From positions 43,775-107,774 of the IMG/VR virus record IMGVR_UViG_3300050015_000656: a DNA stretch of 64,000 nucleotides; one strand, written 5' to 3'. Shown one piece after another: positions 6,824 to 30,300 of the stretch. Both the position numbers and the translations under genes were made by a program. The notes beneath the pieces were generated by a model. The model had not been told where the DNA came from. It saw nothing but the letters and a program-made list of their open reading frames with translations, and searched no databases. This DNA is from a virus. Every line of letters begins with the position of its first letter. Position 1 is the first letter of the stretch.

Positions 6824-7515
6824 TATATTATGTTTTTTAAAATTCGATTAATATTATTTATTTCGCTGTATTTTATTCTCAACAATAAGATATTTTTACT
6901 GTTGGCATATAAATTTTTTGCTTCGTCATTACTTTGTCTTATGTTAAGTTTAGCACTACCGCCCCAATATTCGATTGGTTTAAAGTGTTGTTCTCCGTCA
7001 TACTCAATAAGTATGTTTACCGTTGGTAAATAGAAATCGAATGATAGTTTATTTTTACCACAATCAGCAAATCTTTTTTCTTTAACATATTCAATCATAT
7101 GCATATCCAAATATTTTTTTATTAATAATTCGCCTTTAGATAATTTACATATTGAGCAACCTTTACCGTTTAAATGACCGTTTGGTGTCTGATTGAATAT
7201 GCCGTGTTCTGGACAAATTATATTAATTTTATTATGTGCATTAACGTATTCAACTAAAGAATACCCATATCTATTGTTGTGTATTAAGTTTGCTTTATCA
7301 ATAAATTCATTTAATGTTATATAATTACCAGCACATTTGGGACATCCATGATTACGTAAATGATGTTTTGGTATTTGTTCGAAAACTCCATGTTCTGCAC
7401 ACACTATTTTAATTCTCGAAACATTATTAACATAGTCCACTAACGAATAATCGTATTTCTCGTCATGAATTTTCTTAGCCTTTTCAATAAATTCTTCAGT
7501 GGTATATTTTTTCAT
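6823..7515 (-). CDS. Vsr/PD-(D/E)XK homing endonuclease with zinc repeats
   Basis: 230 residues. Two N-terminal repeats of about 55 residues begin FIEKAKKIHDEKYDYSLVDY and end with a Cys-x2-Cys pair (GCPKC, GCSIC), resembling the DUF723 zinc-binding repeat. The C-terminal 90 residues form a Vsr-like nuclease with FDFYLP, ILIEYDGEQHF and LLLRIKY, giving the acidic and His residues of the active site. It is one of four paralogues here (also 13239, 25991 and 56987). It lies between gp25-like and gp6-like genes, and its stop overlaps the gp6 start as TAATG. Confidence 0.8.
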   Translation of the reverse strand: MKKYTTEEFIEKAKKIHDEKYDYSLVDYVNNVSRIKIVCAEHGVFEQIPKHHLRNHGCPKCAGNYITLNEFIDKANLIHNNRYGYSLVEYVNAHNKINIICPEHGIFNQTPNGHLNGKGCSICKLSKGELLIKKYLDMHMIEYVKEKRFADCGKNKLSFDFYLPTVNILIEYDGEQHFKPIEYWGGSAKLNIRQSNDEAKNLYANSKNILLLRIKYSEINNINRILKNII

Positions 7516-12402: not shown

Positions 12403-13242
12403 TTATTTAAGTCCTTGTATTAATGTATCGCCATATTTAATGCCATCATATCCCATATGCTGTGCTTTTTCGGCAATTGCTTTATTTTTTAAGTTAATTG
12501 GTGGAACTTTATATTGTTCACCTAATTTTTCAAAGTTTACGTGCGGAAACCATGCTTTAGCAAGTACTTCTGCAGGTATTTGGCTGTCCTTATACTCGAT
12601 GCCTAAGTCATTGGTATCAAGTAAGTTTTCAAAATCAATCTGATATTTAATAAATCCTTCAACAGGTGTTAATGTAAAGAAATTTCCAATGACGGACCTT
12701 TCTTTAATTGGTTCTCTACGATACGCAATTATCGACTGGTCATTTTTGCTTGGATTTTCTGATTCAACGCCTGCATTATTTTCTTCAAGTGCTGAAAGAA
12801 ATTCATTGTAGCTTACACCTGAGTTTGTTTGATTATTTGCATTAAGAACATCCTGTCCGACCACTTCTTCCATTTTCTGCACTTCGGTATAGTCATAAAC
12901 GTCCTGTATTTTATTTAAAAGTCTGCAGGCATCTTTAAATTCTAAGTCGATTTTAATTGCTGTCAACGGTAAGTTATCTGTTGTGGCAAAAACATACCGA
13001 TGATGCCCGTCACAGATGGTATTTTCTTTATCAAGCCAAATTGGATTCATATCATTTGGCTTTGCTTTTTCAACATCATCAGAAAAAGTAAATCCTTGTG
13101 ACACATTTAAATTTTTTAACTCTTCTGGACTAATTTGAATGTATTCATAATCAACACCCTCCTCATCGAGTTGTTTCACGACAGCATCAACAGGTGCGCT
13201 AATCTGTGGCAAATAGTACGGCTTGTGTTTCATTCTTATCAT
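12403..13242 (-). CDS. ParB-like and ADP-ribosyltransferase-like two-domain protein
   Basis: 279 residues. Residues about 15-105 resemble a ParB/sulfiredoxin-type domain with MNPIWLDKENTICDGHHRY, where DGHHR corresponds to the conserved DGxHR box. A middle, polar linker follows (about 125-160). The C-terminal part ends in NKAIAEKAQHMGYDGIKYGD, a phrase found near the end of many ART-fold and phage-delivered toxin domains, although no complete R-S-E or H-Y-E triad is clear. The start overlaps the stop of the nuclease 13239-13982 (ATGA). A modifying protein acting on host or phage proteins is possible. Confidence 0.5.
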   Translation of the reverse strand: MIRMKHKPYYLPQISAPVDAVVKQLDEEGVDYEYIQISPEELKNLNVSQGFTFSDDVEKAKPNDMNPIWLDKENTICDGHHRYVFATTDNLPLTAIKIDLEFKDACRLLNKIQDVYDYTEVQKMEEVVGQDVLNANNQTNSGVSYNEFLSALEENNAGVESENPSKNDQSIIAYRREPIKERSVIGNFFTLTPVEGFIKYQIDFENLLDTNDLGIEYKDSQIPAEVLAKAWFPHVNFEKLGEQYKVPPINLKNKAIAEKAQHMGYDGIKYGDTLIQGLK

Positions 13243-13982
13243 ATTACTGACAAATTTTTTAATTCACATTCTAATGCTTCTTTAACAGTGCCTAATACAG
13301 AATAAGGTATTTTAATTAATTTATAGCCATTGTTAATAGCATAATTAATTTTAATTTTGTCACGTTTTTTTGTATCCAATAAAGCATTGTCACCACCAAA
13401 AAAATCAACAGATTTATAATGTTGAATTCCATCGAACTCTATGAATATTTTATGTTTGGGTAGATAAAAATCATAATATAAATTCGAAACAGATTTTAAA
13501 TTATTAAATGTTACTTCACGCTCAAAGTTAATGTTGTGTTTCAACAAAATATTTGCTATTTGTTCTTCATTATGTGAAGCACGACATTTTCTACATCCAT
13601 ATCCATGTAAATGTGCATGGGGCGTTTGTTCAAATTTACCATGCTTATTACAAATAATCGTTATTTTGTTTTCATATCCACCATATTTTACTAACGAATA
13701 ATCAAATCTATTGCCGTGCATTTCTTTTGCTTTTTCAATAAAAGTTTCATTGGTGAACCTATTTTCTTTTGAGATTTTTTCGTATTGACATTTCTTACAC
13801 CCATATCCCGTTAAATGGTCATTCGGTGTTTGCAAAAATTCTCCATGTTTAGTACAAATAATAATAACTTTATTTTTGTTGCCAACATACTCAACTTTCG
13901 AATAATCATATTTATCACCATGTTTATTTAGTGATTTTAATATGAATTCTCCTGTGTTTGATTTTTTTGTTGACCTAATCAT
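13239..13982 (-). CDS. Vsr/PD-(D/E)XK homing endonuclease with zinc repeats
   Basis: 247 residues, paralogue of 6823-7515. Two repeats (FILKSLNKHGDKYDYSKVEY and FIEKAKEMHGNRFDYSLVKY) each end with a Cys pair (GCKKC, GCRKC). The nuclease domain has YDFYLPKHKIFIEFDGIQHY, and LIKIPYS. It leads its transcript, with a perfect GTATTTATAGTAAAA motif at 13997-14004, and its TGA overlaps the ATG of 12403-13242, so the mobile gene now carries the promoter for the genes behind it. Confidence 0.8.
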   Translation of the reverse strand: MIRSTKKSNTGEFILKSLNKHGDKYDYSKVEYVGNKNKVIIICTKHGEFLQTPNDHLTGYGCKKCQYEKISKENRFTNETFIEKAKEMHGNRFDYSLVKYGGYENKITIICNKHGKFEQTPHAHLHGYGCRKCRASHNEEQIANILLKHNINFEREVTFNNLKSVSNLYYDFYLPKHKIFIEFDGIQHYKSVDFFGGDNALLDTKKRDKIKINYAINNGYKLIKIPYSVLGTVKEALECELKNLSVI

Positions 13983-14005: not shown

Positions 14006-14575
14006 TCAGATTATAATTTTTTTTAGTTCGTCTTGAATAATGCATAATGCATTCTGACTTCGACTTGTTTCTGTCAAAGCAATAGTACCTTCAGTTGCAC
14101 GATAAATATTAAATTCAACACCCGATGGTAGTTTACTTCTGATTTCTTCGTATGCTTCAATATCAACATCACGGTCCTCATAGACGTTTATTACCTTCAA
14201 GTCTGGTAGTTGCTGTACATAACGCATAACCTTAACACCTTTGTTGCCTTCTGCACGTTTCATGTCAAATTTATCGACTTTGATTTTATTTGCATCAAGT
14301 ACTGCTTCAACTTCTGAACGTAGTTTTTCCATTCTCGATGTTAAAACAATAACATAAGTTCCGGGAGTTACAATCTCTTTTTTGAGTTGTTTTAACACAC
14401 TTGGAAATGGTTTGATGTCAAAAACCTCTAAGTCCAGGCTTTCTGGTCTACCCCACCATCCACTAAATGGATATTCTTTATCCATTTTCTCCGACCATTC
14501 TTTTTTACCTGTTTCTGGCATAGGAGAATTCATAAGTGTCCCGTCAAAATCAAATACTGCTAATCTCTTAATCAT
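14006..14575 (-). CDS. HAD-superfamily protein of the Swiss-army-knife RNA-repair type
   Basis: 189 residues from the ATG at 14575, which overlaps the upstream TGA (ATGA). The N-terminus RLAVFDFDGTLMNSPMPETG is HAD motif I (DxDGT) with the NSP extension seen in HAD domains associated with the Swiss-army-knife RNA-repair proteins; the following GWWGRPESLDLE supports this. Motif II is VIVLTSR, and a late YEDRDVDIEAY gives the acidic pair of motif IV. These enzymes are predicted phosphatases for RNA ends or nucleotides. It is in the same operon as the giant protein that contains CCA-adding and 2H modules. Confidence 0.65.
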   Translation of the reverse strand: MIKRLAVFDFDGTLMNSPMPETGKKEWSEKMDKEYPFSGWWGRPESLDLEVFDIKPFPSVLKQLKKEIVTPGTYVIVLTSRMEKLRSEVEAVLDANKIKVDKFDMKRAEGNKGVKVMRYVQQLPDLKVINVYEDRDVDIEAYEEIRSKLPSGVEFNIYRATEGTIALTETSRSQNALCIIQDELKKIII

Positions 14576-15069
14576 AACAAACAATTATATTTTATTTCAT
14601 TAATATTGCTTATCTCTGAGCAATACGGTGCAAATATATCTTTTTTTATTAAATAAATGTTCATTTCCTTAGTAATATTTCCTTCTTGTTGAACGCTAAA
14701 GGTTTCATATCGAGTTTCAGGATGCTCAACAATACAATCGTGAATTCTTTGCTTCTCAATTATGTATGCTGTTTCTCCGTCTGCAATAAGCCAATAATCT
14801 GCTTTGGTAATCAATAAACCCGACCACCTGCCATTACAGCCAACCTCAATACAAATATTGCCCGTAATATAAGACATTTCATCATACTTACATTCAAGAG
14901 TCTTTGAGGATTTACTGAAATCTCCGTTGAAAAGAATTATGTCGTAGAAACTATAATCTTCTCTTTTCATGTTTTTGTATGCGAGAGGTAATACCTTACT
15001 ATTGATATCTTCTAAGACGAATTTTTCAAAATCAAATCCTTTTGCAGATGCTTCTTTCCAACTTGGCAT
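14572..15069 (-). CDS. PD-(D/E)XK nuclease-like protein
   Basis: 165 residues. A short helical start is followed by YDIILFNGD, then TLECKYDEMS, which gives the D-x(n)-E-x-K pattern of a restriction-type nuclease fold, and a later GLLITKADYWLIAD strand. It is wedged between the giant protein gene (2 nt away) and the HAD gene (4-nt overlap), so it is translated with them. The activity could be DNA or RNA cleavage or holding of ends. The alternative is a non-catalytic subunit, since the motif is short. Confidence 0.5.
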   Translation of the reverse strand: MPSWKEASAKGFDFEKFVLEDINSKVLPLAYKNMKREDYSFYDIILFNGDFSKSSKTLECKYDEMSYITGNICIEVGCNGRWSGLLITKADYWLIADGETAYIIEKQRIHDCIVEHPETRYETFSVQQEGNITKEMNIYLIKKDIFAPYCSEISNINEIKYNCLL

Positions 15070-15070
15070 A

Positions 15071-18000
15071 TTATTCTACTTCGGTTACTTTTCCTGTTAA
15101 TATCAATGGTTCACTCAAATTTACCCACATGCTTAATTGATTTGACATCATTGGTTTACCACCCTGTGCACGATTTACGGCAATAGTTATATGTGGCTTC
15201 TTATTCTTTGTGAGATATTTATCCACCACCACACCAACTGCCATAACCATATCATCCATAGAAAATTCTGTGGCTTCCATAACAATAGTCATGCCCAAGA
15301 ATTTCAAATACTCTGGAGCAATCGGACCTAAGTTCATTGTCATGTGATGTGCAATAGTTTCCCAACCTTCGGGAATCATATTACCAAGTCTCTTAAGCAA
15401 TGCTGTACGGGATTTGTCATCAAGCACCACGGCAGTATATTTCACATTTTTATTCATGTCTTCGTCAAGTACTTCGTTATCAACTAATTTGTGATATAAA
15501 TCGTGTTTTAATTTTTCATCATGGCTGAAATCCTCATAATTATTCTGTAAGAATTCCAATACGGATTTATCTGATGCACTTTCATATCCACCTTGATTCC
15601 ACTCATAATATTTATCCGTAAAGAAATTAATATCAACCTGTTGTCCATTTACGTTCCAAGTAGGCTTCTCTTGACCTGTTTCAGGATAACTATATTCGTT
15701 AAGTGTAATTGGTTCGCCTTTAACATTCTCATAATACTCCGGATAAAAATTATATTGAGGATTACGTCTTTTTGCAGCTCTTAAGAAGTCATTAACAATT
15801 TTTATGTTGTCATAATCATATTCATCTGCAGCAAAATCATAACTACTGTCAGCCAAACCGAAATCATTTGTGCTTCCAATTCTGTTTACAAGCATCCATT
15901 CAGTCAAATAATTATACATGGCTTCTGTATCACCCTCAATAAATCCCAATGCTCTACCAATATTACCATGATTAAAATAACCGTCCTTTTGTGCAAGAAA
16001 TAAATTGCCCTCTTGGTCAATTATTCCTCTGACTCCCGGACCGATATTCCGTAATGATTTAGGATTTTCATATATTGGTGACTTTTTACCATTTCTATCT
16101 CTTACCATAGCAACTGGTTCTTCTTCCTGTGCCTGTACTGCACCCCTTGCAATCACGTCTTGTTCTGCACTCTGATTTGGCATGTTAAACATCCTTTCAG
16201 CAGCTTTATCGGCAATACTTTCATCTACACTACCGTCAAGCATAAGTTTATCGCCATCATTGCCTTTATGACCTTTCCAAGTATAAACCAATTCAGTACC
16301 GTTAAGCATTCTGTTCTTCTCGAATGGTTTAATGTACTTCTGTCCTTCTCCGGGTTTAACATACGCAATTGTAATATGTGGATGATAATCGGGGAATGCA
16401 CTTGTATGTGGTAATGCTTTCATTATCTCATTTAATTTTGTAAGTTCTGGAGATTCAACATCGAACTTAACAACATCAAACTTAGGATTACCAGTGAAAA
16501 ACGATATGCCCTTAATTCCTATCTTAATTGGTTCTATCGGCATATTTTTTTCAAACAAACTAAAGCAATCTTCTGAAGTTACTTCATCGTGAAAACCATA
16601 TAATATTGTAGTATGTGGTTCTGTTTCAATTCCATATCCTGGCTCGTCATAAACATCATCAGGAGAAATTATTGACGTAATTTTTGTCCAAATCGGAACG
16701 TCAAGAAACAACATCAGACATCCATATTCTATTTTGTCCGTGGGTTTTACTTCTTCCTTAATCATTTCGCCATTTTGTTTCGCCAAAGCTAATAAATCTT
16801 CACGATTATTCCTAACCTTATCTGCATAAACCTTTAGCAATAATGATTTTTGCATGTCGCCAATTGCCTTACCCTGTAAACCAAGTTGTGACAAATCATT
16901 ACCATTAACAGCTAATTCGTTGACAGTTTTAGGATATTTGCCCTGTTGAAATTCTTCTGAGGCTTTTTGAAGTCCCATTGGAATTATCTGACTCTGTAAT
17001 GCCTGTGGACTTAGCAGATACATATTATGTGCAATTGACCTATCGAGAACATCATGTGTTATGTCGGGTAATGTAAACGCTAATTCAAGTGCTTTAATTT
17101 CCTTATATGTTGGGATATCACCTTTGAGATTATTCTTGTAAAATTCCGAAGGACTCTGAACAGTACCAACTGCCAACAGATAAATAAATTCACCCATTGT
17201 TTTAACATCGGCAATTCTATCGCTAATCTGCTTTGGCTGTCCACCGAAAATCTGTTCATATAAGCCAGTATTCACAAGTAAATCCGCACCCATTTTCACA
17301 TTACCCTTCTTGATTATCTTATCGAATTCCGTTAAAATTCTCTCTGGTGCAATTTCTTTAACCCTCTGGGCATTTTCTTTTATCATCTGCATAGTCTGTG
17401 GCTCAATTGTAAACCCGAAACGTGATGCAAATTGTACTGCACGCAACATTCTCAATGGGTCATCACTGAATGCCTGTGGATTAACAATACGAATAATTTT
17501 GTTTTTAAGGTCTTCTTGACCACCAAATGGGTCAACTATATTACCCTCTGAATCTTTTGCAATAGCATTAATTGTAAAATCCCTGCGTTCCAAGTCTTTT
17601 TCAATCGGTAGTGCATGGTCAGACTTAACATCAAAACCTTGATGACCACCTTCACCCGTAGCTGTTTCAGTACGTGGAATAGCAATGTCAATATCATCGG
17701 TAGCACCCTTTGGCTTGAATTTCAACACACCAAATGATTTACCAACAGCATCTACACGACCATATTTGCCAAGAAGTTGTTCAAGTTCTTCAAACGGCAC
17801 ACCAGTAATAAGCACATCCAAATCTTTGGATTGTTTACCAAGAAATTCATCCCGGACCGCACCACCAACACTATAAATTTTACCACCAAGTTGCTCAACC
17901 TCTTGTTTGAAAGGCAAGTCTTGTAATGACATTATTTCCGCTTCGTTCATGACTGATTCTTCAAGTGCATTATCTCCATAAAAACGTATTGATTCCGCTA

Positions 18001-21000
18001 TGAATTCCATAGTCGGATTTTTTTCTTTTGCCAAAGATAAGAATTTTTCGTAATATGGCAACGCTTCTTCTCTTTTTGGTACAGTTTCCCAATAACTTGA
18101 ATGAAAGTTTCTTTTTTCTTCTGGATATAACGGTGCATTTGACTCTCCAACTAAGATGATATTATCTCTTTTATATCGTTGAACAGTCAAAAAATTAGTT
18201 GGTGGGGTTTTATCCCAATGTTCCTCATTTTCAATGACTCCCAAGCTATTGAGGGTATAGAGTAATTCGAAGTGTATAACAACACTTTTTTGTTCAGTGT
18301 ATAAGTTTCCTTCTTTGTCAACAACACCCCGGACATCACCCCAAATATTTTTCCAAGATTTCGGATTTTTTATTATTACCAACCCATTTTCGGGATTATT
18401 GTAAACGATATCTTCGGAATCCTGCTCCCTGTTGAACCTATCGTTGAATTCTGCATCAGGATTCGGAACATTAAACATTTTTTCCGCAGCAACATCCGCT
18501 ACACCTTCGTCAACACTTACTGGTTCTCCTTCAATAAAAGTATAATATTCTTCATAAAACTCATATTGTGGATTTCGTCTTTTTGTGGCTTTCAATATAT
18601 CAATTGCATTGTCATAGTTATGCGCATTTGAATTAATATATCTTGAAGAAATGTCCCCCAAACCGAAATTATTTGTTAAGTCAACCCTATTAAGTAATTG
18701 ATATTTATCTAATTCTGAATATATTCTTGCATCAATCGTGAATAATCCCAATGCTTTTGCTATATTACCGTGGGTAAATGAATAATCTGCTTGTGCAACA
18801 TATAGATTTCCATCTGTATCTGCGATTGCCCGTACATCCCTTTGAAATCTTTCTAAGGATTTGGGATTTTTATAAATTTGACTAACTCTTCCAATGGTAT
18901 CTACTACTTCTCCAACAGGTTCATTCGTATTTTTTTCTATCTCACCCTGTGCTTGAACGTCTTGTTCTGCATGTGGGTCGGGAATATTAAATGCTTTCTC
19001 AGCATATTTATCAGCCACACCTTCCATTTGATATTTCTTACCACCCGTAGGTTTGAAATTCTTCTTAAATGCAGTGTACATCAGACTTGAAATTCTTTCA
19101 GATTCTCCTTCTTCACTGATACTCTCTGTTCTTTTTCTGAAAAGCAATTCAACTTTATTTGCAATGTCATGGGCGTTATCGTATGTATAACCATAATGCT
19201 TGATAAGATAGCTTTCAACCCTTTCATGAAGTAAAATCCCTTCAAAGTCGTTTGGCTTTGTCAAATGTACGTCATCAACCCAAAGTTCGTCTGCTGGAAT
19301 GTGCTTAGCATATTTTTGCTGTGATTTTGGTAAGTCATAGTCAACCCAATGATTGCCACCTTCAACCCACTCAATAAAACCACTGTCACGCACTTCGTCA
19401 CCATTAACTGCATAAACGGGATTGACATCAATACCGTCATTGTATGTACGGATTAATTTCTTATCCAATTCATGTGTAGTATTGTCTTTCTCAATCTGTG
19501 GTTCACTTACAGGAAATTCTTCTTCGTGTATTGTGTTTTTCATTTTATCGAGATACTGCTCATAGTCTGTATCTTGAAATATTTCAGAAGTTTCTTCGTC
19601 TGGCTCATCGTATGCTTCTAAACCATTAATCTCATAGAAAGCATTCATTCTCTTTTTAAAATCATCAGTAATATCGACTTTGCCAATATAATGACCTTGT
19701 ACTGCCCTTCTGAATCTAACTTCTTTTAAATAAGTAAAATCACCTATTTCCCAATGAGAAATGTCCGCATCGGGTTTTTCGTTTATTTCATAAACATAAA
19801 AAACTCCCGGATTTTTACCGTGTTGCATAAACATCGAATACAGTCCCATTAAAGCACCACCAACACTTTTACTTGCAGCAATTTCTGGTGTTTCACTAAC
19901 CCAAAACGTATCATACTTATATATTGGATTACCGTCATCGTCAATTGCTTCGTAATAACCTTCGGGTTCAAATTCAATCGTTTCACCCATATATTTTTCA
20001 ACAGCACGATAATATTTTTCACCACCACTTGTTACCACTTCATTTATTGCAGTATTGGGAAGTCTGTACATCAACTGCATAGTCTGGAAGTCCTTATTCC
20101 TGCCTTTGTTCATGATAAATCCCAATGATTTATACCATGCAGTTAGTTTAGACTTACTTGCGCCCCACATACTATCGGGAGTTAATGTAACAATTAATTT
20201 ATTTCTGTCGGCATAGTCAAAGATAAGTTTCATTGCATCATTGGCATATCCTTTACCTCTGAATTCTTTGTTGATAAAAATTTTATCTATTGCGATGTAA
20301 TGATTCTGACCTTGAACGCCTCTGTCCATGATACCTACCTCACCAACGACTTGACCATCATCAGTTATCTTAAGCGAATCATATCCGCTTAAATTGTTTG
20401 GTAGATTAAGATTCACAGACTCTTTAATACTACCAAATGTCAAGTTGCCAATATCTCCTTGATTACAGGCAGTGCTTGTACCGTCACCATTACCACCAAG
20501 TCTGCACTTTTTCTTAACATCAACAGTTTTACTGCCAGATTGAAACGACTGAACTCTTTCTGTTATTTGAAATTCGTCTTGGGTTGCATCACCGACAACA
20601 TGGTTATATTCTAAGTCTTCGTTTACTTCACTGTTTGCGTTTAAATCGTTGCTTATTGAGGGTGAAGTGTCCATATTATTGTATGTTGGAAAATTATCTT
20701 GACCAAAACTATTGTCTGTCGAATATAATGCTGAACCGTCTTCGTCAACTTGAACAGGTTCTGGCATATTATTAGATTTAAAAAAATAATTACCAAAACC
20801 TACATCAAAAAATCCCAAATTACCATTTGGTTTATATCCTAAGTTATTTGGATTTGTATAATCTGTACTTTCTAAGCCGTATTTTTTTACTTCTTCGCCA
20901 ATTTTAAGTATTTTATCAAAAAATTCTCTGTCTTGTGGATTTCTTGCAAAGTATTTTTGAACCTTATCTTCATCCACATTGTCATCGCCAAAACGATTGT

Positions 21001-23137
21001 GTATGAAATGGTCAAGAACATCGCCATAGTTTGCACCCATTATTTTTTCAAACGCAAATTTCATTCTTTCAACTCTTGCAATAAAATCAGCCTTATCTGT
21101 TCTTAACTTCTCTAAGATTATCACATAAAGGTCATATCTCGTTTCGCCCGACAATGTATTAGACTTAATTGAGTAGACCTTATATGGTTGAGCAATGTAT
21201 TCTAATGGTTTACCAATAAGTTCAAGATTTTCATTTGCTTCGCTTTGGTCCTTAGTAACCTTTAATACTAAATTGTTTCCTATATCATATGCATAGCCAA
21301 ATACACCATCACCAAGAGGTTTTGGCTGACCATATCCAAACTTCTGTGCTACACTATTCGCCACTTTATTAGCGACTTCTCTCGGAAATCCTGTAGGTTC
21401 TTCATTCAGTACTTCTTCACCTTCGGGTAAAGAAATTCGGTTTTCTGGTGGTAAATCCGGTACAACTACACCCATGCATCCACCTATGTCATAGTATGTT
21501 AAAATACCGTTCTTATATCCCAAATTACTGAGAGTCATATAATCGTCTGACTTAATCATCAGTGCAAGTAATTCTCTTTTAATGTCATAGAGTCCCAACA
21601 TAAAACGATATGCCTTTTCTCTATCGCCTGCAGCAATATTAGCATCGGGATTTGCCGTTAAAATTAGTTTAGCTAATTCTGGAAAATCGTTAAATGTTTT
21701 TCCAAAAAATTCCGTATCTTCTTTCTTAGGTTTACCTTTGATTAAAATTCTCAATAACCTACCGTATAAGTCTTCACCGAGCGAATTAATTATTTCAGTG
21801 TATCTTTCAAATTCCTGATGTGGTTTATCAACAATATTGTCTTCGATAAGCGCATAAACTGCTTTGTTTTGTTCGGTGTCAGTTACCTTATACACATTGT
21901 AAACCATTGCAAGTGTTTTAGGCTTACCCCTGCTAATTTTTAAACCAGCATCGACCTCACATGCATCAGTAGTAATTTTTAAAACCCTGTTGTTATTAAC
22001 CTCATAAGCATATCCATATCCACCACCACCAAGATATTTAATAGCACCAAGATTTAACTTCTGTGCAACCGCATTAGCAAGAGTATCAGAATATTCTCTT
22101 GGTAATTGCATTGCTGCAACTTTTGGACTACTCTCATTTATTTCTACAGTTTCTTCCTCAAGTGGTTCTCTATCATAGAATTTACCTCTGATAAGATAGT
22201 CTTGAAGTTCCAATAAGTTACTATAAAATTTCTTTTTCTCAGGTACGTGTTCAAGTACTTCTTTAAGGTTGTTTACTACATCATGAAATTCATCGACAAT
22301 ATATGGAGCACTTGGAAGTTTTGATGTTGGATATTTGTCTCTGTTGAGTACAAATGAAATAAAATCTTCATTAATTACGCCAGGTCCGTCACCTACACCG
22401 TAAGGCATAAGTCCCCACATAGCTTGTCGGGTATCAACGGCATCTTGTGGTGGTAAATCACCAAGCATATCGTCATTACCATCGGCAAAGTTATAAAGTT
22501 CATACATTTGATACTTTTGGTTTTTGCCACTATAATGAGTATCTACAACTTCATCATTTAACCCATAGTCGGTTAAAACTATTGCAGGTTTACCGTTACG
22601 CAGTACTTCTCCAAAGGTACTTGGTCTACCCATATCGCCTGAGTTTTGAGCATAGCTTGCAACAAAATCGGCTAATGAAAATGCAAATTCGTTTTTATTC
22701 CAAAAAAATTCTTCAAGTTCGGGTGATTGTGGAAATATTTTCTTATGCCCCTTACTTAATTCTTCGGCATTCTTAAGAAACTCTTTTAAATCATTCAAAC
22801 TTGGAATACCTGTTACTTGTTTAATACGTGCTTCATTGACTTTCTTAGCCTTTTCTGCTATCAACCAAGTATCGTCATCCATAGAATCAATAACCTTTGC
22901 AAGTATATGATGATTGCTTTCAAAATATCCTGCACCTGTCTCTGCTTCGTTTTGACCAACACCTTTGGGGTTTTTCGCAAGTTTTAATACCTTTTCACCA
23001 TCAATGTCATAAACGATTCGACCACTACCACTACCAATTCTCGGTAAGTATTGATTTGCGTACTTTATTTTTCCATTAAATGATTTAATTTTAAGGAATT
23101 CTGGTAAGAAATTCGTTTTGAATTCAGCGTATGTCAT
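15071..23137 (-). CDS. Giant multi-enzyme protein: kinase-like, GNAT, ART-like, CCA-adding and 2H modules
   Basis: 2688 residues. Modules in order: three kinase-like folds (about 30-240 with GSGSGRIVYD and DYG; 365-560 with GGGGYGYAYE; 605-780 with GDGVFGYAYD), GNAT acetyltransferase (about 915-1020, EFRGKGYANDAM), ART-like (about 1035-1190), a putative HExxE region (about 1300, LLHERVES), two related repeats (about 1372-1535, 1541-1730), class II tRNA nucleotidyltransferase (about 1745-2080) with VGGAVRD, DLDVLI, RRDFTINAI, DPFGG and DDPLRMLRAV, a 2H phosphoesterase (about 2135-2290; HTTILYG, HPHITIAYV), a third repeat (about 2306-2475) and a C-terminal 2H-like domain (HHMTMN, PHITIAV). The borders carry INE, LNE, VNE, MNE or VDE. 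This fits a head-packaged polyprotein cut by a T4-type protease. A GTATTTAT motif lies at 23159. Confidence 0.75.
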   Translation of the reverse strand: MTYAEFKTNFLPEFLKIKSFNGKIKYANQYLPRIGSGSGRIVYDIDGEKVLKLAKNPKGVGQNEAETGAGYFESNHHILAKVIDSMDDDTWLIAEKAKKVNEARIKQVTGIPSLNDLKEFLKNAEELSKGHKKIFPQSPELEEFFWNKNEFAFSLADFVASYAQNSGDMGRPSTFGEVLRNGKPAIVLTDYGLNDEVVDTHYSGKNQKYQMYELYNFADGNDDMLGDLPPQDAVDTRQAMWGLMPYGVGDGPGVINEDFISFVLNRDKYPTSKLPSAPYIVDEFHDVVNNLKEVLEHVPEKKKFYSNLLELQDYLIRGKFYDREPLEEETVEINESSPKVAAMQLPREYSDTLANAVAQKLNLGAIKYLGGGGYGYAYEVNNNRVLKITTDACEVDAGLKISRGKPKTLAMVYNVYKVTDTEQNKAVYALIEDNIVDKPHQEFERYTEIINSLGEDLYGRLLRILIKGKPKKEDTEFFGKTFNDFPELAKLILTANPDANIAAGDREKAYRFMLGLYDIKRELLALMIKSDDYMTLSNLGYKNGILTYYDIGGCMGVVVPDLPPENRISLPEGEEVLNEEPTGFPREVANKVANSVAQKFGYGQPKPLGDGVFGYAYDIGNNLVLKVTKDQSEANENLELIGKPLEYIAQPYKVYSIKSNTLSGETRYDLYVIILEKLRTDKADFIARVERMKFAFEKIMGANYGDVLDHFIHNRFGDDNVDEDKVQKYFARNPQDREFFDKILKIGEEVKKYGLESTDYTNPNNLGYKPNGNLGFFDVGFGNYFFKSNNMPEPVQVDEDGSALYSTDNSFGQDNFPTYNNMDTSPSISNDLNANSEVNEDLEYNHVVGDATQDEFQITERVQSFQSGSKTVDVKKKCRLGGNGDGTSTACNQGDIGNLTFGSIKESVNLNLPNNLSGYDSLKITDDGQVVGEVGIMDRGVQGQNHYIAIDKIFINKEFRGKGYANDAMKLIFDYADRNKLIVTLTPDSMWGASKSKLTAWYKSLGFIMNKGRNKDFQTMQLMYRLPNTAINEVVTSGGEKYYRAVEKYMGETIEFEPEGYYEAIDDDGNPIYKYDTFWVSETPEIAASKSVGGALMGLYSMFMQHGKNPGVFYVYEINEKPDADISHWEIGDFTYLKEVRFRRAVQGHYIGKVDITDDFKKRMNAFYEINGLEAYDEPDEETSEIFQDTDYEQYLDKMKNTIHEEEFPVSEPQIEKDNTTHELDKKLIRTYNDGIDVNPVYAVNGDEVRDSGFIEWVEGGNHWVDYDLPKSQQKYAKHIPADELWVDDVHLTKPNDFEGILLHERVESYLIKHYGYTYDNAHDIANKVELLFRKRTESISEEGESERISSLMYTAFKKNFKPTGGKKYQMEGVADKYAEKAFNIPDPHAEQDVQAQGEIEKNTNEPVGEVVDTIGRVSQIYKNPKSLERFQRDVRAIADTDGNLYVAQADYSFTHGNIAKALGLFTIDARIYSELDKYQLLNRVDLTNNFGLGDISSRYINSNAHNYDNAIDILKATKRRNPQYEFYEEYYTFIEGEPVSVDEGVADVAAEKMFNVPNPDAEFNDRFNREQDSEDIVYNNPENGLVIIKNPKSWKNIWGDVRGVVDKEGNLYTEQKSVVIHFELLYTLNSLGVIENEEHWDKTPPTNFLTVQRYKRDNIILVGESNAPLYPEEKRNFHSSYWETVPKREEALPYYEKFLSLAKEKNPTMEFIAESIRFYGDNALEESVMNEAEIMSLQDLPFKQEVEQLGGKIYSVGGAVRDEFLGKQSKDLDVLITGVPFEELEQLLGKYGRVDAVGKSFGVLKFKPKGATDDIDIAIPRTETATGEGGHQGFDVKSDHALPIEKDLERRDFTINAIAKDSEGNIVDPFGGQEDLKNKIIRIVNPQAFSDDPLRMLRAVQFASRFGFTIEPQTMQMIKENAQRVKEIAPERILTEFDKIIKKGNVKMGADLLVNTGLYEQIFGGQPKQISDRIADVKTMGEFIYLLAVGTVQSPSEFYKNNLKGDIPTYKEIKALELAFTLPDITHDVLDRSIAHNMYLLSPQALQSQIIPMGLQKASEEFQQGKYPKTVNELAVNGNDLSQLGLQGKAIGDMQKSLLLKVYADKVRNNREDLLALAKQNGEMIKEEVKPTDKIEYGCLMLFLDVPIWTKITSIISPDDVYDEPGYGIETEPHTTILYGFHDEVTSEDCFSLFEKNMPIEPIKIGIKGISFFTGNPKFDVVKFDVESPELTKLNEIMKALPHTSAFPDYHPHITIAYVKPGEGQKYIKPFEKNRMLNGTELVYTWKGHKGNDGDKLMLDGSVDESIADKAAERMFNMPNQSAEQDVIARGAVQAQEEEPVAMVRDRNGKKSPIYENPKSLRNIGPGVRGIIDQEGNLFLAQKDGYFNHGNIGRALGFIEGDTEAMYNYLTEWMLVNRIGSTNDFGLADSSYDFAADEYDYDNIKIVNDFLRAAKRRNPQYNFYPEYYENVKGEPITLNEYSYPETGQEKPTWNVNGQQVDINFFTDKYYEWNQGGYESASDKSVLEFLQNNYEDFSHDEKLKHDLYHKLVDNEVLDEDMNKNVKYTAVVLDDKSRTALLKRLGNMIPEGWETIAHHMTMNLGPIAPEYLKFLGMTIVMEATEFSMDDMVMAVGVVVDKYLTKNKKPHITIAVNRAQGGKPMMSNQLSMWVNLSEPLILTGKVTEVE

Positions 23138-23184: not shown

Positions 23185-23206
23185 AAAGGACATCTTACTG
23201 TCCTTT
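23185..23206 (-). terminator. Terminator that contains a stop codon
   Basis: Minus strand: AAAGGACA-6 nt-TGTCCTTT then CTTTTT. The TAA of 23195-24007 lies in the stem-loop, so the last codons form one arm. Confidence 0.75.
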
Positions 23207-24007
23207 ATTTTTGTTTTTGTTTTGTAATTCTCGTATGGTTTCGTAAACCACCGATTTTATCATTTCCTTATTCTCTGTAAGCACTTCTTTGATTCTTTCA
23301 ACAGCATACATTTCAAGTATGGTTGACTTAATGGCTTCCTCCACAATCGGACCGAAGTTTTCCATGAGATAGTTATTCACTGTTCTCTTTACACTCTCAG
23401 TTAAATAACCCTCATTAATCATTGGCATACCATTGTTTCCGAATGACACTGCAGGTGGATTTAATAGACTTCCATCAGGATTAACGGGTTGTCCCTTGGC
23501 ATTGTATAGCTGATTTGCAGCCATTGCTCTATTGTTATTAAAACCTTCGATAGATTCAGCAAGAGTTCCATTATTACCTGCCACACCAACACTTCTGAAT
23601 TTTCTTTGAAAATCACTGAAGATTGCATCGTCTCTTTCTGGTCCCATTCCCATATCGGCTTCATTAATTCTTCCCGGCTGAACATACTGTGGGGGTTGAT
23701 TGTGTTGCGGTGCTGCAGGAGCAACATAATTTGTAGAATTTTTTAATTCCTTAATTTTATTTATCGCTTCAGGTGTTACGACACCACTTTTAACTGCGCC
23801 ACTAATAATGTCTGCCCTTTCATTCATTGTCTTTATATTGTTCACAACAGGAGTATTCTGACCTGTATGAAGTGATGTAAGCAAGCTATTTAGGAATACA
23901 TCTTTTGCAGGTATTGTAGTACCTTGCATTGTTTCACCAAGAATGCCTTTTTCCTTTTTGCGGGTATCTATCTCAGTTCTGAGTTTATTTAAATCGGGTT
24001 TTGCCAT
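23195..24007 (-). CDS. Putative prohead core or packaged protein
   Basis: 270 residues, polar and helical, with a Pro/Gln-rich middle (NYVAPAAPQHNQPPQYVQP) and a helical C-terminus from about 200. It has two (I)-N-E sites, GRINEADMGMG (about residue 115) and PMINEGYLTES (about 200), matching the I/L-x-E cleavage rule of T4 gp21. This, plus its place between the giant protein and the next packaged-type proteins, suggests a head-internal or scaffold role. No sequence family recognised. Confidence 0.45.
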   Translation of the reverse strand: MAKPDLNKLRTEIDTRKKEKGILGETMQGTTIPAKDVFLNSLLTSLHTGQNTPVVNNIKTMNERADIISGAVKSGVVTPEAINKIKELKNSTNYVAPAAPQHNQPPQYVQPGRINEADMGMGPERDDAIFSDFQRKFRSVGVAGNNGTLAESIEGFNNNRAMAANQLYNAKGQPVNPDGSLLNPPAVSFGNNGMPMINEGYLTESVKRTVNNYLMENFGPIVEEAIKSTILEMYAVERIKEVLTENKEMIKSVVYETIRELQNKNKNKGQ

Positions 24008-24054: not shown

Positions 24055-24945
24055 TTATTTGAAAAAAGTCGGTTTATTTAGATTTTCTTGTGCAATATTT
24101 GTTCTATTTAATTCATTCACTGCATCACTTTCGGCATTTTTAAAAAATCCGACATCGGTTTGCTTCTGACTTGGCTGAACTAATTTCACGTATAAGTCTT
24201 TAAGATTTCCAACAACTGAATTAGGGTCAATGCTTTGTAACTGATTCTCTGTTTTCAATACCATATCGCCATTCTCTGTACTAACCACCCAATATTTTGC
24301 TCTTGAACCACCTGCTCTCATCTGATTTACCATACCCCACAGATGTTTAACTTCATCGGCAGTAATATCTCTTTGTTTTTTAGCAACATTTGAGAAATTT
24401 CTGAACTTATTCTTTTGTCCTGCAAATGCAGATGGTTGTGGTTCGGGAAGTTTTTGTGCAGTAGTATTACCCACAACATTTGTTTGTGGTTCACCGCTAT
24501 CTATTTGTACTGCAGCCACAATGCCCGTCATTTGGGAATCATTGGGGTTATATCCTTCGGGAAATTTATCTTTGTTTGTACTGAAAATTTCACCTGTCGG
24601 TAAAAAGGATGTAATTTTATCTACTCTGAATAATCTCCATCCGGGTTTAGCCTTTCCCTTTTGATTATAATATACTTTCCTACTGTCGGTGTTACCTGCT
24701 TCCTGCCATGCACGAAGTAACATATATCCACCTTCCGCTTGTGCTTTCTGTGATTTACTATGACCCAATACCATTGGCATTATTGTTCGATAACCTTTCA
24801 TAATGGTGTCATCACCAGCATAATATATGTGAACATACTTATGCTTATTAATAGCATCGGCAATAGTACCCTCTCCAACACCTTCATTTAAAAGTTGCCT
24901 GAAGTGAGTCAGGGTTTCCAAGAATATTTTAGCCTCACTTAACAT
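24055..24945 (-). CDS. WYL-like domain protein with capsid-targeting-like N-terminus
   Basis: 296 residues. The first 21 residues form an amphipathic stretch that ends FRQLLNE, followed by GVGEG. This resembles the capsid-targeting peptides of T4 internal proteins, removed after (L/I)-x-E. Residues about 30-115 resemble a WYL-type SH3-like domain: HKYVHIYYAGDD, then YRTIMPMVLGHSKSQ, LLRAWQEAG and GWRLFRVDKITSF. The remainder is low complexity and helical. WYL domains bind nucleic acid or nucleotides in transcription and defence regulators. A phage protein that enters the host with the DNA is one reading. Confidence 0.5.
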   Translation of the reverse strand: MLSEAKIFLETLTHFRQLLNEGVGEGTIADAINKHKYVHIYYAGDDTIMKGYRTIMPMVLGHSKSQKAQAEGGYMLLRAWQEAGNTDSRKVYYNQKGKAKPGWRLFRVDKITSFLPTGEIFSTNKDKFPEGYNPNDSQMTGIVAAVQIDSGEPQTNVVGNTTAQKLPEPQPSAFAGQKNKFRNFSNVAKKQRDITADEVKHLWGMVNQMRAGGSRAKYWVVSTENGDMVLKTENQLQSIDPNSVVGNLKDLYVKLVQPSQKQTDVGFFKNAESDAVNELNRTNIAQENLNKPTFFK

Positions 24946-25227: not shown

Positions 25228-26013
25228 TTAATCGTACTTTTTAAACGATAATGTTATGTATTCAATCAAATTTGGTACAATGTCCAGGTAATGCATTTCA
25301 TCCACATCATACCAACCATAGTTTGTGTTTTCGGCATTATCTAACTCAATTTCAGTTGGGTCGCCCTCATATCGACAAGCAAAAACTGTTTCAATGCTCT
25401 CAGGATTCCTTTGTATTGTGAAGGTCCTGACAAACTTATTAATTTCCAACCCAATTTCTTCAAGTATCTCTCTCTCAATAGCACGCTGTGGAGTTTCACC
25501 CTTCTCAATAGCACCACCAACCAATGCCCATTTCTCCGGCATCCAAGGTGCTTCTTTGCCTCTTTTCAACAGTAAAATCTTATTGTCGTTATTTACAATA
25601 ACTGCAACGGCATTTTTTTGTTTTTCTTCTTTCTTCTCTTTCTTTTCTTCATTCAGTGTTGGCATGGGACTATTCGGCATTAATTCTGAATTAGGATTTG
25701 ATGTCATATCCTGCTTGGTTTCTTTTGACCTTGCCACACCTGCTCTATCTTGTGCTAATGAAGTTTCAATAAACTGTCTCATTGCTTCCCCACCAGCAAG
25801 GGCATATTGTGTTTTATCATCAGTCTGTGGATTAAAATAATCAAAGAAGTTTTTAAGTCTTTTCATTGCTTGATATGTTAAATTACCGTTCTTAAGAATG
25901 AAATTAGCACGTTTAAGACCATTTTCATTCGAAGTGGATGCTTTAGCCACCGCAATACCATTAAGTACATTTGAGGGTATCCTATATGTCTTATCTTTGA
26001 GATATTGGTTCAT
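25228..26013 (-). CDS. Nudix hydrolase fused to a virion-type N-terminal domain
   Basis: 261 residues. The C-terminal domain (about 130-261) has the complete Nudix box, GGAIEKGETPQRAIEREILE followed by EIGL, so it should hydrolyse a nucleoside diphosphate linked to another moiety. The N-terminal 110 residues are helical and contain YRIPSNVLNGI and AGGEAMRQFIETSL; this region resembles domains in other virion-associated phage proteins. The two parts are joined by PTLNEEKKEKKEEKQ, which holds an LNE site, so a head protease could release the free enzyme. The N-terminus overlaps the end of the upstream nuclease by 23 nt. Confidence 0.8.
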   Translation of the reverse strand: MNQYLKDKTYRIPSNVLNGIAVAKASTSNENGLKRANFILKNGNLTYQAMKRLKNFFDYFNPQTDDKTQYALAGGEAMRQFIETSLAQDRAGVARSKETKQDMTSNPNSELMPNSPMPTLNEEKKEKKEEKQKNAVAVIVNNDNKILLLKRGKEAPWMPEKWALVGGAIEKGETPQRAIEREILEEIGLEINKFVRTFTIQRNPESIETVFACRYEGDPTEIELDNAENTNYGWYDVDEMHYLDIVPNLIEYITLSFKKYD

Positions 26014-26710
26014 ATGCTTCTAAGATTTTGTTTATTCTGTTGATTTGGTCAAACTTTATTCTCAATAGAAAGTAGTTGTTTGATTCTGCAAAAGTATTTT
26101 TTATTTCATCGTTAATTTTCTGGATTCTAAACTTATCAAGTCCACCGAAATGGTTATTAGCTATAAAGTGTTGTGCACCATCAAACTCTATTAATACGTT
26201 GTTCTCTGGAAGAAAAAAATCGAATGCAAGTTTATTTATATTTTTACAGTCATTAAATTTTTTCTCTCTTTCAAAAGCAATTGAATTATTTATTAAATAT
26301 TTTGCAATCTCTCTTTCTCCGATAGATTCTGTACAACTGGGACAACCACATCCTTTTAAATGAGTATTTGGTTTTTGATTAAATTTTCCATGAATCGGAC
26401 ATAATATTTCTACATAAATATGTGCTGTTATATAGTTAACATTAGAATAATCATATCTATCTCCGTGAATTTCTTTTGCTTTAGTAATAAAATAATCAGT
26501 ATTTTTTCTTAATTTCATTTTACCACACAATGGACAACCACAACCCTCTAAATGAGTATTTACTCGCTGTATGAATTCGCCATGTGTGGGACATGATATG
26601 ATAATATTATCGTGTGTATGTTTAAAATCAACCAAATCATACTCATAATAATTATTGTGCACAGCATTTGCTTTAGCAATAAACGCATCTATAGTTAATA
26701 TCCTTGCCAT
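25991..26710 (-). CDS. Vsr/PD-(D/E)XK homing endonuclease with zinc repeats
   Basis: 239 residues, paralogue of 6823-7515. Repeats FIAKANAVHNNYYEYDLVDF and FITKAKEIHGDRYDYSNVNY carry the Cys pairs GCPLC and GCPSC. The nuclease part has AFDFFLPENNVLIEFDGAQH and LLRIKFDQINRI. The start overlaps the stop of 26710-27333 (TAATG) and the end runs 23 nt into the Nudix gene, so it is inserted with almost no intergenic DNA. Confidence 0.8.
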   Translation of the reverse strand: MARILTIDAFIAKANAVHNNYYEYDLVDFKHTHDNIIISCPTHGEFIQRVNTHLEGCGCPLCGKMKLRKNTDYFITKAKEIHGDRYDYSNVNYITAHIYVEILCPIHGKFNQKPNTHLKGCGCPSCTESIGEREIAKYLINNSIAFEREKKFNDCKNINKLAFDFFLPENNVLIEFDGAQHFIANNHFGGLDKFRIQKINDEIKNTFAESNNYFLLRIKFDQINRINKILEAYEPISQR

Positions 26711-27388: not shown

Positions 27389-30300
27389 TTATTCCGGACC
27401 ATCGCCACTATCATCGTAGCCAAAATCTGCAGCTTCTTCTTCCTGTTCGCTTTCCATGTTCTCCACATAAGTGTCGAATGCACCCATTGCTTCGGGTACT
27501 TCCACGAAAAGTTTATCCATAGTTATGTGTGCAGGAAGTCCAAATTGTTTCACAAAGCCGGGGAAGTGTAATATTCTTTTTTCTATCTTAGCTTTTAAAT
27601 ATTTATCCTTCTCAGTTTCAACATTAGCCTCTTCGAGATTTTTCAGTTTTTCTTGCTGTTCTGCTCTTTTTGTATCAAGTTCAAGTTCGATTTCACTCTT
27701 AGGTACTTCAACATTGTCTCTGATAATTTCCATGAAAATACCATTGAATTTACCCACATGATATTGGCTACCATCCTTAACGAGAACTAAATCACCCTTA
27801 TCATATTTGTCATTAATTGACTTGATTTGTGGTTTACCGCTTGCTACCATTTTGTCGTTCAAGAACTTCAAAGCACCTTCGTAAATTTCGTAGTAAACTT
27901 TATCGTCTTCGTGCATCTTAAAACCATTCCACACAAGTCTTGGGTCATATCCGGTCTTATTCCAGAATTCCACTTCTTTAGGTTCGAGATACATTGAATC
28001 ATCATAATCGTCACTGTCAAAGTTTTTAAGTTCGAGTTTTCCTGGTTCGTAACTACATTTAGTTATTTCCTCAATAGTACTTTTGTTGCCAAACTCATCT
28101 TTGACTTTCTTTTTCACAATCTTAGCAAGCATTGTATTAATTACCTCATCCTCAAAGCCAACAAGTATTGAACTAACTCTGCTGTTAAATGCATCAAGGT
28201 ATTTCACGACATTATAATAACCTGTCATTGTGGGATTCTCTTGAAGTTCTTCTGCACTAATTAAAGTAGATGCAAACCTGTCTTCACCAGTATCTTTGTC
28301 CTTAATTGTAGCTGAACTACCGTGAGACTTCAAATAACCTGTATTAACTTGGTATACAACAGAATCTAATTCGGGTTCGGGTGGCATATAATTAGCCACA
28401 AGTCTTAATTTATCGTCCGATGTAAGTTTTTCTTCCTGCTTGGTGAAATTAATCTCTGCCTTATACTTTTCGAAAAGCGCATCAGCAATTCTATGACGTT
28501 TCTGTAGTAATAACTCCATGTGTGCTTGCATTGCCTTATCCCTACCGTTCTTATCCTTACCTCTTTTCATGTAGGCATTTAAAGACATTTTAACCCTGTT
28601 CTTGGTTGCGATTTTCTTCAATGGAATTCTCTTATAGTATATGTCATCGACATAATCGTAGTAGTAATCAACAAACTCCTTACCCTTACCGTGGAGAATA
28701 AGTTCGAAACCTTTGTCAATGAATTCTTCGATATACTCAGGCATTACTTTGGACTTAATTGTATTACCAGTGAGTTTGACTTTCTCTTTCATTTCACCTG
28801 TCTTTTTGTCTTTAACATTCGACAAGGTTGCATAGTTGATACGTGAAAGGTTCAAGCATGAAAGGAATTCACCGTCATTATCAACCGACATGTACGGTAA
28901 TTTCATTTCCTCAGTGTTAAACTTTTTAATAAGTGCAGAAACACCTGTTTTACCACCATACTGCCACATATCCTCAATTAATCCCTCAGTTATTCCCTCA
29001 GTTATTCCCTCATCGGTAACTCTTATTGTGGTCCTGTCAGGAATATGGAAGTTTATACCGTCTGTTACAGCAAGCAATGCAACACAACCAAAACGATTGA
29101 ACCATGTGATTGCATGACGAAGTTCAAGACGACCTGCACAAGTAATACGAGCTGCACAAGTATTGTCCGACCAGTTGAATGACATATCCGAACCCAAAGC
29201 ACCGAAAAGTGAGTTGTTCAAAATCTTAATAGGCAACTGCTTAACTTTAAACATTGCACGGTCCGCAGTGGTGAGAGTATCACTCAAATATTTTTTATGA
29301 ACGTCAGGGTCAATCAGTTGTATCAACATAAGTTCTTCCTCGTTCAGTTTATCTGAATTTGCAAGTTTCTTATAAATGTTACGAGTAGTTGTAAGATACA
29401 ACAACATTTTTCTGATAACACCCGTGATGTCGAACATCGGGAATATGTTCCAAGTTAACTGGAGCATAGGGTAAAGTGATGCGTAGTCAATCTTAACAAG
29501 TCTCTGTGTAAAACCAACCTTATAACATCTTGCAAGACCACCCGAAAAGTTTTCTTTCACATCGGAATGTGGAATAGCAAGGTCATTCTCATAACTCCAT
29601 GCAGTCAAAAGTAAGTTCCAGATTGCAGCCGTACCCATAGTACAAACTCTCTGATAGGTAGTTGGTACAATCTTAGCCAACATGAATGCTGACTGATTAT
29701 AAAGTTCATCGACCTGTTCTGTTTCCCAAAGGTCATCGAGCAAGTAATTCTTAACAAGATTTTTACCACCGATAAAGGTTGTCATTTTCTTTGGGGCAGC
29801 TTCTGCTCTGAACCACTGAACAAATCCCGGACATTCATCAAGGCATTGAGTTCTTAATCCAGCATATTCTATATCTGAAAGATTGGCTTTATTTGCTTGT
29901 ATTCTGTATAATCTTCTTGAACATGTTTGAAATTCATCGGGTATCTGCAAATAATCGTTGGTTTCACTGACAAGAAACATTTTATTTTCAGTATAGTATC
30001 TGCCGATTGCATTGTCTTCTCCGGGAATATATGTTCTGTTCGGTCTGGCAATCTTCTCATGCTTGGCGATATACTTCAAACCATTTGCTTTGATTTCCGT
30101 GTTTACTGCAGCGGTTTTCTTAACAGCATGAATGATATCAATGACTGAAAGTCCCCACATTTCGGTTGCAGTAAACTTCTCAGCAGTATTACCATATTTT
30201 ACTGAAACATTGGGTCTTCTTTTAATATAGGTGTCTTTCTTTAATGTGGTTTGAAGTTTACCCATATTCATTTTGAGTTCCTTTGCCCTACCGAGAATAA

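What the first reader, a model, noticed from the sequence alone, without database searches (positions are those of the whole stretch)
15071..23137. Giant multi-enzyme protein with protease-site-like sequences at its module borders
The 2688-residue protein combines kinase-like, GNAT, ART-like, tRNA nucleotidyltransferase and 2H modules. The borders carry (I/L/V/M)-N-E or V-D-E: INE near 333, LNE 579, VNE 838, INE 1031, VDE 1540, MNE 1731, VDE 2305, LNE 2479. T4 prohead protease cuts after (I/L)-x-E. Inference: a head-packed polyprotein, cut into enzymes in the capsid and injected with the DNA.
Basis: partly seen in the sequence, partly recalled or inferred. Interest (0 to 1): 0.92.

Follow-up and report, generated by a model that had tools for sequence, protein, structure and literature searches.

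The report
Capsid-protease-cut enzyme polyprotein in jumbo phages
A giant phage gene appears to make one long chain of about a dozen enzymes and domains, joined by the cutting sites of the phage's own shell-maturing protease, so the chain is probably packed into the head, cut apart there and delivered to the host cell with the DNA.

Summary
Window 15071-23137 (minus strand) is an intact 2688-aa ORF with three kinase-like domains, a GNAT, a CCA-adding enzyme, two 2H domains and modules not identified here; the "ART-like" module is unconfirmed. A longer record carrying the same 28-kb stretch at 100% identity encodes a T4-type (S77) prohead protease beside a scaffold-like gene and a gp23-like capsid protein with a candidate ...MINE|S site that is nearly invariant in 80 relatives. 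In 54 non-redundant relatives, homology-segment ends coincide with [ILVM][ND]E 3.4 times more often than chance; [ILVM][ND][^E] shows 1.0. Modules are swapped while the L/I-x-E at the junction stays. Distant phages, including isolate XacN1, encode the kinase alone behind a T4-internal-protein-like leader ending in LxE|. The gene just upstream carries such a leader in 37 of 37 relatives. Best explanation: a polyvalent effector polyprotein that is head cargo, cut in trans by the prohead protease. Packaging, cutting and injection are inferred; no virion data exist. New variant of a known kind (polyvalent proteins plus T4 internal proteins).

The parts
15071..23137 (-). whole polyprotein ORF, 2688 aa
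   Evidence: identical in a longer record
22133..23137 (-). module 1 (res 1-335): N-terminal MTYxEF... leader-like helix, kinase-like domain A, helical part; conserved INE257 and border INE335
   Evidence: phrog_4301
21401..22132 (-). module 2 (336-579): kinase-like domain B, ends VLNE579
20741..21400 (-). module 3 (580-799): kinase-like domain C, ends QVDE799
20558..20740 (-). disordered linker 800-860 with VNE840 and ITE860
20420..20557 (-). 46-aa conserved tag peptide 861-906 (..VKKKCRLGGNGDGTSTACNQGDI..SIKE) followed by different modules in different phages
20039..20419 (-). GNAT acetyltransferase module 907-1033, ends AINE1033
   Evidence: Pfam PF13508/PF00583
19025..19522 (-). module 1206-1371, HExxE...Y..AH motif (zincin-like, tentative)
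18506..19024 (-). repeat module copy 1 (1372-1544), ends SVDE1544
   Evidence: paralogues 1545-1732 and 2307-2481
17942..18505 (-). repeat module copy 2 (1545-1732), ends VMNE1732
16754..17941 (-). CCA-adding / tRNA nucleotidyltransferase module (1733-2128), ends MIKE2128
   Evidence: PF01743 3e-23, PF12627, phrog_2244 2e-67; stand-alone ORF in sisters
16220..16753 (-). 2H phosphoesterase-like module (2129-2306), ends SVDE2306
   Evidence: PF13563 2e-6, weak Acb1 match
15695..16219 (-). repeat module copy 3 (2307-2481), ends TLNE2481
15461..15694 (-). small module 2482-2559, ends VLDE2559
15074..15460 (-). C-terminal 2H-like module (2560-2688); separate 126-139-aa ORF in about 20 sister loci
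   Evidence: HxT motifs HMT and HIT
24055..24945 (-). adjacent upstream gene, 296 aa, with a leader helix and LLNE21|G; (L/I/V)(T/K/N/S)E|(G/A/S/N) in 37/37 relatives
23195..24007 (-). adjacent upstream gene, 270 aa, with INE116 and INE199, recurrent INE|G/A sites in relatives

Best explanation
The gene encodes a head-cargo effector polyprotein of a T4-related jumbo phage. The precursor enters the prohead core through its N-terminal segment (MTYxEF..., reminiscent of the T4 capsid-targeting sequence). After shell assembly the phage's S77 (gp21-type) prohead protease cuts after L/I-x-E in the flexible linkers, releasing about a dozen small proteins (three kinase-like enzymes, an acetyltransferase, a CCA-adding enzyme, two 2H phosphoesterases and others). 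These stay among the DNA and enter the host at infection, where they modify host proteins and repair RNA or blunt nucleotide-based defence. Shown here: ORF, modules, protease gene, sites at borders, their conservation through module exchange, stand-alone relatives with T4-like leaders. Inferred: packaging, cutting in trans, injection and the function of each module.
For: 1) A longer record containing the identical 28-kb stretch has an S77/head-maturation protease (Pfam S77; phrog_207 1.8e-27), followed by a scaffold-like gene and a gp23-like capsid protein, the T4 order 21-22-23. 2) The capsid protein has a candidate propeptide end MINE60|S, nearly invariant in 80 relatives (I77 L2, N78, E79, S73 A5). 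3) The gene just upstream starts with a ~20-aa helix ending (L28 I8 V1)(T23 K7 N6 S1)E37|(G20 A9 S6 N2) in 37 relatives. T4 internal proteins read in the same way: MKTYQEFIAE|A...TITE|A. Published gp21 specificity is L/I-X-E (PMC9026906). 4) In 54 non-redundant relatives, 166 of 389 homology-segment end clusters lie within 10 aa of [ILVM][ND]E against 49 expected (z 17); [ILVM]xE 304 vs 164; controls [ILVM][ND][^E] 195 vs 195, [ILVM]ED 6 vs 7.8, DxE 50 vs 45. 5) The tag peptide ends in [ILV]xE in 27 of 28 polyproteins while what follows differs. 6) Border sites keep L/I-x-E in sisters; E102, 283, 723, 2074 and 2237 mostly do not. 7) AlphaFold2 puts E335, 579, 799, 840, 860, 906, 1205, 1544 and 1732 in segments with pLDDT < 50. 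8) In distant phages the same kinase is a ~220-aa protein with a leader such as MKEFIKQKLNE|S, or is preceded by (V/I/L)(N/K/T)E|A inside other proteins; in isolate XacN1, MKQVRLSQFLSE|A.
Against: No virion or cleavage data of any kind. P1' at the borders is often D/E/N, whereas the leader sites have G/A/S. About half of the [ILVM]NE/DE in this ORF are not at module borders, so the short motif alone does not define cutting. The 1365-1372 border has no fitting motif. In many sisters the last 2H module, and in several the CCA module, are separate ORFs without a recognisable leader, so these activities may not need packaging. A leader-type N-terminus is not over-represented in the whole proteome (12 vs 12.5). 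Relatives are not independent samples.
Confidence: 0.72

Rival explanations
1. A polyvalent protein in the sense of Iyer et al. 2017 that works as one long chain, or is cut by a peptidase inside itself (the HExxE module 1206-1371); the L/I-x-E at borders is incidental linker sequence.
For: Polyvalent proteins share this domain repertoire (kinases lacking the C-lobe in Bacteroidetes phages, GNAT, ART, NTase), and embedded metallopeptidases are proposed to release domains (PMC5512222). This ORF has a possible zincin-like motif.
Against: The border enrichment is equally strong in 45 relatives lacking that module (3.3x against 3.2x). Incidental linker composition is made unlikely by the matched controls. 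The same motif ends leaders of neighbouring and stand-alone proteins.
Confidence: 0.13
2. The polyprotein is cut by the prohead protease but mainly as a core/scaffold component; most pieces are degraded or leave the head, and few enzymes are injected.
For: T4 gp22, gp67 and gp68 are cut at many L/I-x-E sites and removed (PMC9958956; PMC9026906). Sites are numerous here.
Against: Catalytic motifs are kept in CCA (GGAVRD...DLD), 2H (HxT twice in each) and GNAT (RGKGYA) modules. Sites avoid folded domains. A scaffold-like gene already exists next to the protease.
Confidence: 0.08
3. The enzymes are made and used inside the infected cell, not packaged; the ORF is a fusion whose sites are cut by another protease or not at all.
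For: Stand-alone CCA and 2H ORFs without leaders in sisters. Phages commonly encode intracellular RNA-repair enzymes (general knowledge).
Against: Kinase relatives carry T4-like leaders. The adjacent upstream gene has a leader and site conserved 37/37. The site matches the specificity of the phage's own protease family.
Confidence: 0.07

Closest known systems
Polyvalent proteins of phages and conjugative elements (Iyer et al. 2017, PMC5512222)
   Same: Single chains with many unrelated effector domains; same kinds of kinase, GNAT, ART and NTase domains; ART-PolyVal (PF18760) in two sister chains; some likely packaged and injected.
   Different: There, release is ascribed to peptidase domains in the chain, with an analogy to RNA-virus polyproteins. 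Here sites for the phage's separate capsid protease lie at the borders, also in chains without any embedded peptidase-like module.
T4 internal proteins IPI-III and Alt, processed by gp21
   Same: Head cargo delivered to the host; N-terminal targeting leader ending L/I-x-E; Alt is cut at ITE-6 and LTE-619 (PMC5694885).
   Different: T4 cargo consists of single proteins trimmed at their ends; here many enzymes are chained and the sites separate them.
Giant phages SPN3US, phiKZ and 201phi2-1 with cleaved head proteins
   Same: Many head proteins cut after x-x-E by a gp21-like protease, with injected cargo.
   Different: In SPN3US 13 of 14 mapped sites remove N-terminal propeptides (PMC10052503); no chain of enzymes is described there.
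Polyproteins of eukaryotic RNA viruses and retroviral Gag-Pol
   Same: One precursor, several enzymes, virus protease, cutting linked to particle assembly (general knowledge).
   Different: No homology; DNA phage; cargo for delivery rather than replication proteins.

Membership tests
Polyvalent proteins (Iyer 2017) | several unrelated effector domains in one polypeptide of a phage | tested here: met
Polyvalent proteins (Iyer 2017) | shares domain families of the class (kinase without C-lobe, GNAT, ART-PolyVal, NTase) | tested here: met
   GNAT and NTase in this ORF, kinase fold, ART-PolyVal in sisters L136/L138; a missing C-lobe was not checked residue by residue
Polyvalent proteins (Iyer 2017) | packaged and injected | not testable with these tools
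   needs virion proteomics
gp21-type prohead protease substrate | phage encodes an S77 protease in a T4-like head cluster | tested here: met
   (in the longer record; the window's own record is a fragment without it)
gp21-type prohead protease substrate | L/I-x-E sites in accessible linkers, conserved among relatives | tested here: met
gp21-type prohead protease substrate | cut in vivo or in vitro | not testable with these tools
   no virions or enzyme
T4 internal protein / CTS cargo | short N-terminal leader ending in L/I-x-E | tested here: inconclusive
   MTYxEFxxNFLPE|F resembles MKTYQEFIAE|A, but E13 aligns in only 17 of 31 and P1' is F/L
ADP-ribosyltransferase | module 1034-1205 matches an ART family or fold | tested here: not met
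   no Pfam match at E up to 10, poor model and no fold match

The most novel reading that the evidence does not exclude
A DNA phage polyprotein system: one precursor with one targeting leader loads a dozen effectors at fixed ratio into the prohead, and the shell-maturation protease dices it there. The L/I-x-E borders act as a cassette grammar through which modules (and a portable 46-aa tag) are exchanged between phages, and free-standing T4-style cargo becomes part of a chain simply by fusing leader sites.
Probability: 0.55. Interest if true: 0.88.

Novelty: new variant of a known kind. Interest (0 to 1): 0.78.

Why it matters
It would join two known ideas, polyvalent effector proteins and T4-type head cargo, by a concrete mechanism. 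It predicts exact N-termini for about a dozen virion proteins, explains how large effector sets could be loaded with one targeting signal, and makes the cargo of uncultured jumbo phages readable from sequence through the L/I-x-E borders. It also points to tRNA repair (CCA addition, 2H) as something these phages may deliver at the very start of infection.

Tried and rejected
Embedded peptidase as the processor: rejected as the main cause, because the border motif is equally enriched in chains lacking the HExxE module. Linker composition as the cause: rejected by matched controls. ART identity of 1034-1205: not supported. Membership in the bS21 freshwater phage clade (PMC9723584): no S21 gene in ten records. 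A proteome-wide scan for T4-like leaders gave no excess (12 vs 12.5), so the leader pattern alone is not informative; only its conservation in named families is. The P0001 query in viral contigs returned only the identical record; relatives came through the capsid protein and then the kinase alignment. In the phage-genome collection the kinase has one relative, XacN1, and the tag peptide only chance-level hits. The S77 search of the window's own 107-kb record was empty and had no positive control; the longer record settled it. No paper found in the held library describes prohead-protease processing of an enzyme chain; subscription papers and preprints are mostly outside it.

Full report
WHAT IS THERE. 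The ORF at 15071-23137 is on the minus strand, 2688 codons, no interruption. The window is part of a 107,774-bp virus record. A 299,144-bp IMG/VR record holds the same ORF and a 28-kb stretch around it at 100% identity; I used the longer record to read the rest of the genome. Pfam and PHROGs recognise GNAT (about 912-1010), CCA/poly(A) polymerase (1754-1964) and a 2H domain (2172-2265); the C-terminal 2560-2688 is a second 2H-like domain. AlphaFold2 on residues 1-917 with 11 relatives gives three compact kinase-like domains joined by disordered segments 203-253, 322-336, 572-582 and 799-917; Foldseek's best PDB matches are p38/JNK kinases, aminoglycoside phosphotransferases and methylthioribose kinase at E about 3e-4. 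A module occurs three times (1372-1544, 1545-1732, 2307-2481). The ART-like label for 1034-1205 could not be confirmed.

THE MOTIF. [ILVM]NE occurs 11 times against 3.6 in shuffles (p about 0.001); NE alone, [ILVM]DE and [IL]xE are not significantly enriched. From this one protein the case would be weak.

THE PROTEASE. The longer record has an S77 match in a 649-codon ORF; PHROGs call it head maturation protease (1.8e-27). It is followed by a scaffold-like gene and a gp23-like capsid gene, the order 21-22-23 of T4. The ORF is long because an intein sits at EADHPD|C...HWTGN|SS; most sisters have the uninterrupted EADHPDSSIISLQNISH. Capsid-protein alignments of 80 relatives show MINE60|S almost invariant; that this is the propeptide end is my inference from T4 gp23, which loses 65 residues. 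The published specificity of T4 gp21 is L/I-X-E (PMC9026906).

RELATIVES. The capsid protein led to 80 related loci. Of 24 larger records searched, 14 carry homologues of this ORF in varied architectures. An alignment of the first module then brought 71 loci and 54 non-redundant chains. I defined module ends without reference to the motif, as clusters of ends of local alignments among the chains, and asked how many have the motif within 10 residues, with circular shifts of motif positions as the null. [ILVM][ND]E: 166 of 389 against 49 (3.4x). [ILVM]xE: 304 against 164. Changing the last residue ([ILVM][ND][^E]) gives 195 against 195; [ILVM]ED 6 against 7.8; DxE 50 against 45; [^ILVM][ND]E 91 against 66. 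Both the hydrophobic residue and the glutamate matter, as for gp21. Relatedness inflates z values; the ratios and controls carry the argument.

JUNCTIONS SURVIVE EXCHANGE. A ~46-residue tag (..VKKKCRLGGLGNTSxACNQGDIxNLxIKxLNE) occurs in 28 chains; 27 end in [ILV]xE (INE, LNE, VNE, LKE, IDE, LTE...), and what follows differs (GNAT-like, ART-type HGTN, W.WVSP, EGVGDKYAEK and others). In sisters the last 2H domain is often a separate ORF of about 127 aa that begins at the 2559 border, and the CCA enzyme a separate ORF beginning at the 1732 border: the modules are independent units.

LEADERS. The gene just upstream begins with a ~20-residue helix ending (L/I/V)(T/K/N/S)E|(G/A/S/N) in 37 of 37 distinct relatives. 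T4 IPII and IPIII read MKTYQEFIAE|A and IPI MKTFKEF...TITE|A. In distant phages the kinase stands alone behind such a leader (MKEFIKQKLNE|S, MKNLIKKRVTE|S, MKKLIKNLLRE|A) or inside other chains directly after (V/I/L)(N/K/T)E|A; in isolate XacN1 it starts MKQVRLSQFLSE|A. So the free protein looks like T4-type head cargo, and the chain looks like several such cargoes joined at their sites. The start of this ORF, MTYxEF..NFLPE, resembles the T4 leader, but a site there is uncertain.

MECHANISM AND LIMITS. The simplest account is import of the chain into the prohead core, cutting after L/I-x-E by the S77 protease, retention of folded enzymes, and injection. T4 gives precedents for each step: cargo with a targeting leader, Alt cut at both ends (ITE-6, LTE-619; PMC5694885), and an injected ADP-ribosyltransferase. 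An embedded peptidase, as proposed for polyvalent proteins (PMC5512222), is unlikely to be the main processor because chains without the HExxE module show the same enrichment. Against the account: border P1' residues are often acidic, unlike the G/A/S of the leader sites; separately encoded CCA and 2H ORFs lack leaders; nothing was measured on virions. I put 0.72 on the chain being cut head cargo of this kind. The delivered activities (tRNA 3'-end repair, 2H phosphoesterases that might act on RNA ends or CBASS signals, kinases and acetyltransferase on host proteins) are inferred from domain families only.

Noticed in passing
L010:14639-16588 (minus), longer record 295639-297588: The prohead protease gene carries a ~400-residue intein inserted at the conserved EADHPDSS motif (EADHPD|CVNASES...HWTGN|SS); about 15 of the ~75 sister protease genes share it and the rest are uninterrupted, so splicing may gate protease activity.
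   Followed up: partly
window 6823-7515, 13239-13982, 25991-26710, 56987-57703 (minus): Four paralogous ~230-250-aa ORFs (repeated CxxHG..F.Q.P..HL.G.GC..C units plus an IEYDGxQH endonuclease-like end) sit between structural genes, with GIY-YIG-like (33322-34218, 45819-46526) and HNH-like (1008-1664, 58925-59485) ORFs: a heavy load of homing-endonuclease-like genes.
   Followed up: no
longer record 235886-236332 (L007:11886-12332, minus): 148-aa metalloprotease-like protein (HELVH) with a leader GSPQRLFEMMRRVNNLNE|S; its neighbour 233175-235874 starts with a similar GSTDRLLEVFQKVNKVKLNE|D, suggesting further head-cargo proteins.
   Followed up: partly
longer record 131723-134491 (L001:14607-17375, minus): 922-aa protein with six [ILVM]NE sites, second only to the giant ORF; possibly another multiply cut head protein.
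   Followed up: no
window 14006-14584 and 12403-13242 (minus): Genes just downstream: a HAD/polynucleotide-kinase-like phosphatase (phrog_415) and a 279-aa ORF whose first half matches phrog_2859 and whose second half looks ART-like by eye, extending an RNA-repair or effector theme around the polyprotein.
   Followed up: partly
longer record 28086-29351, plus strand: A 421-aa ORF elsewhere in the genome contains the GVADKAAEKLFNIPDPNTA motif otherwise found at the start of the repeat modules of the polyprotein.
   Followed up: no
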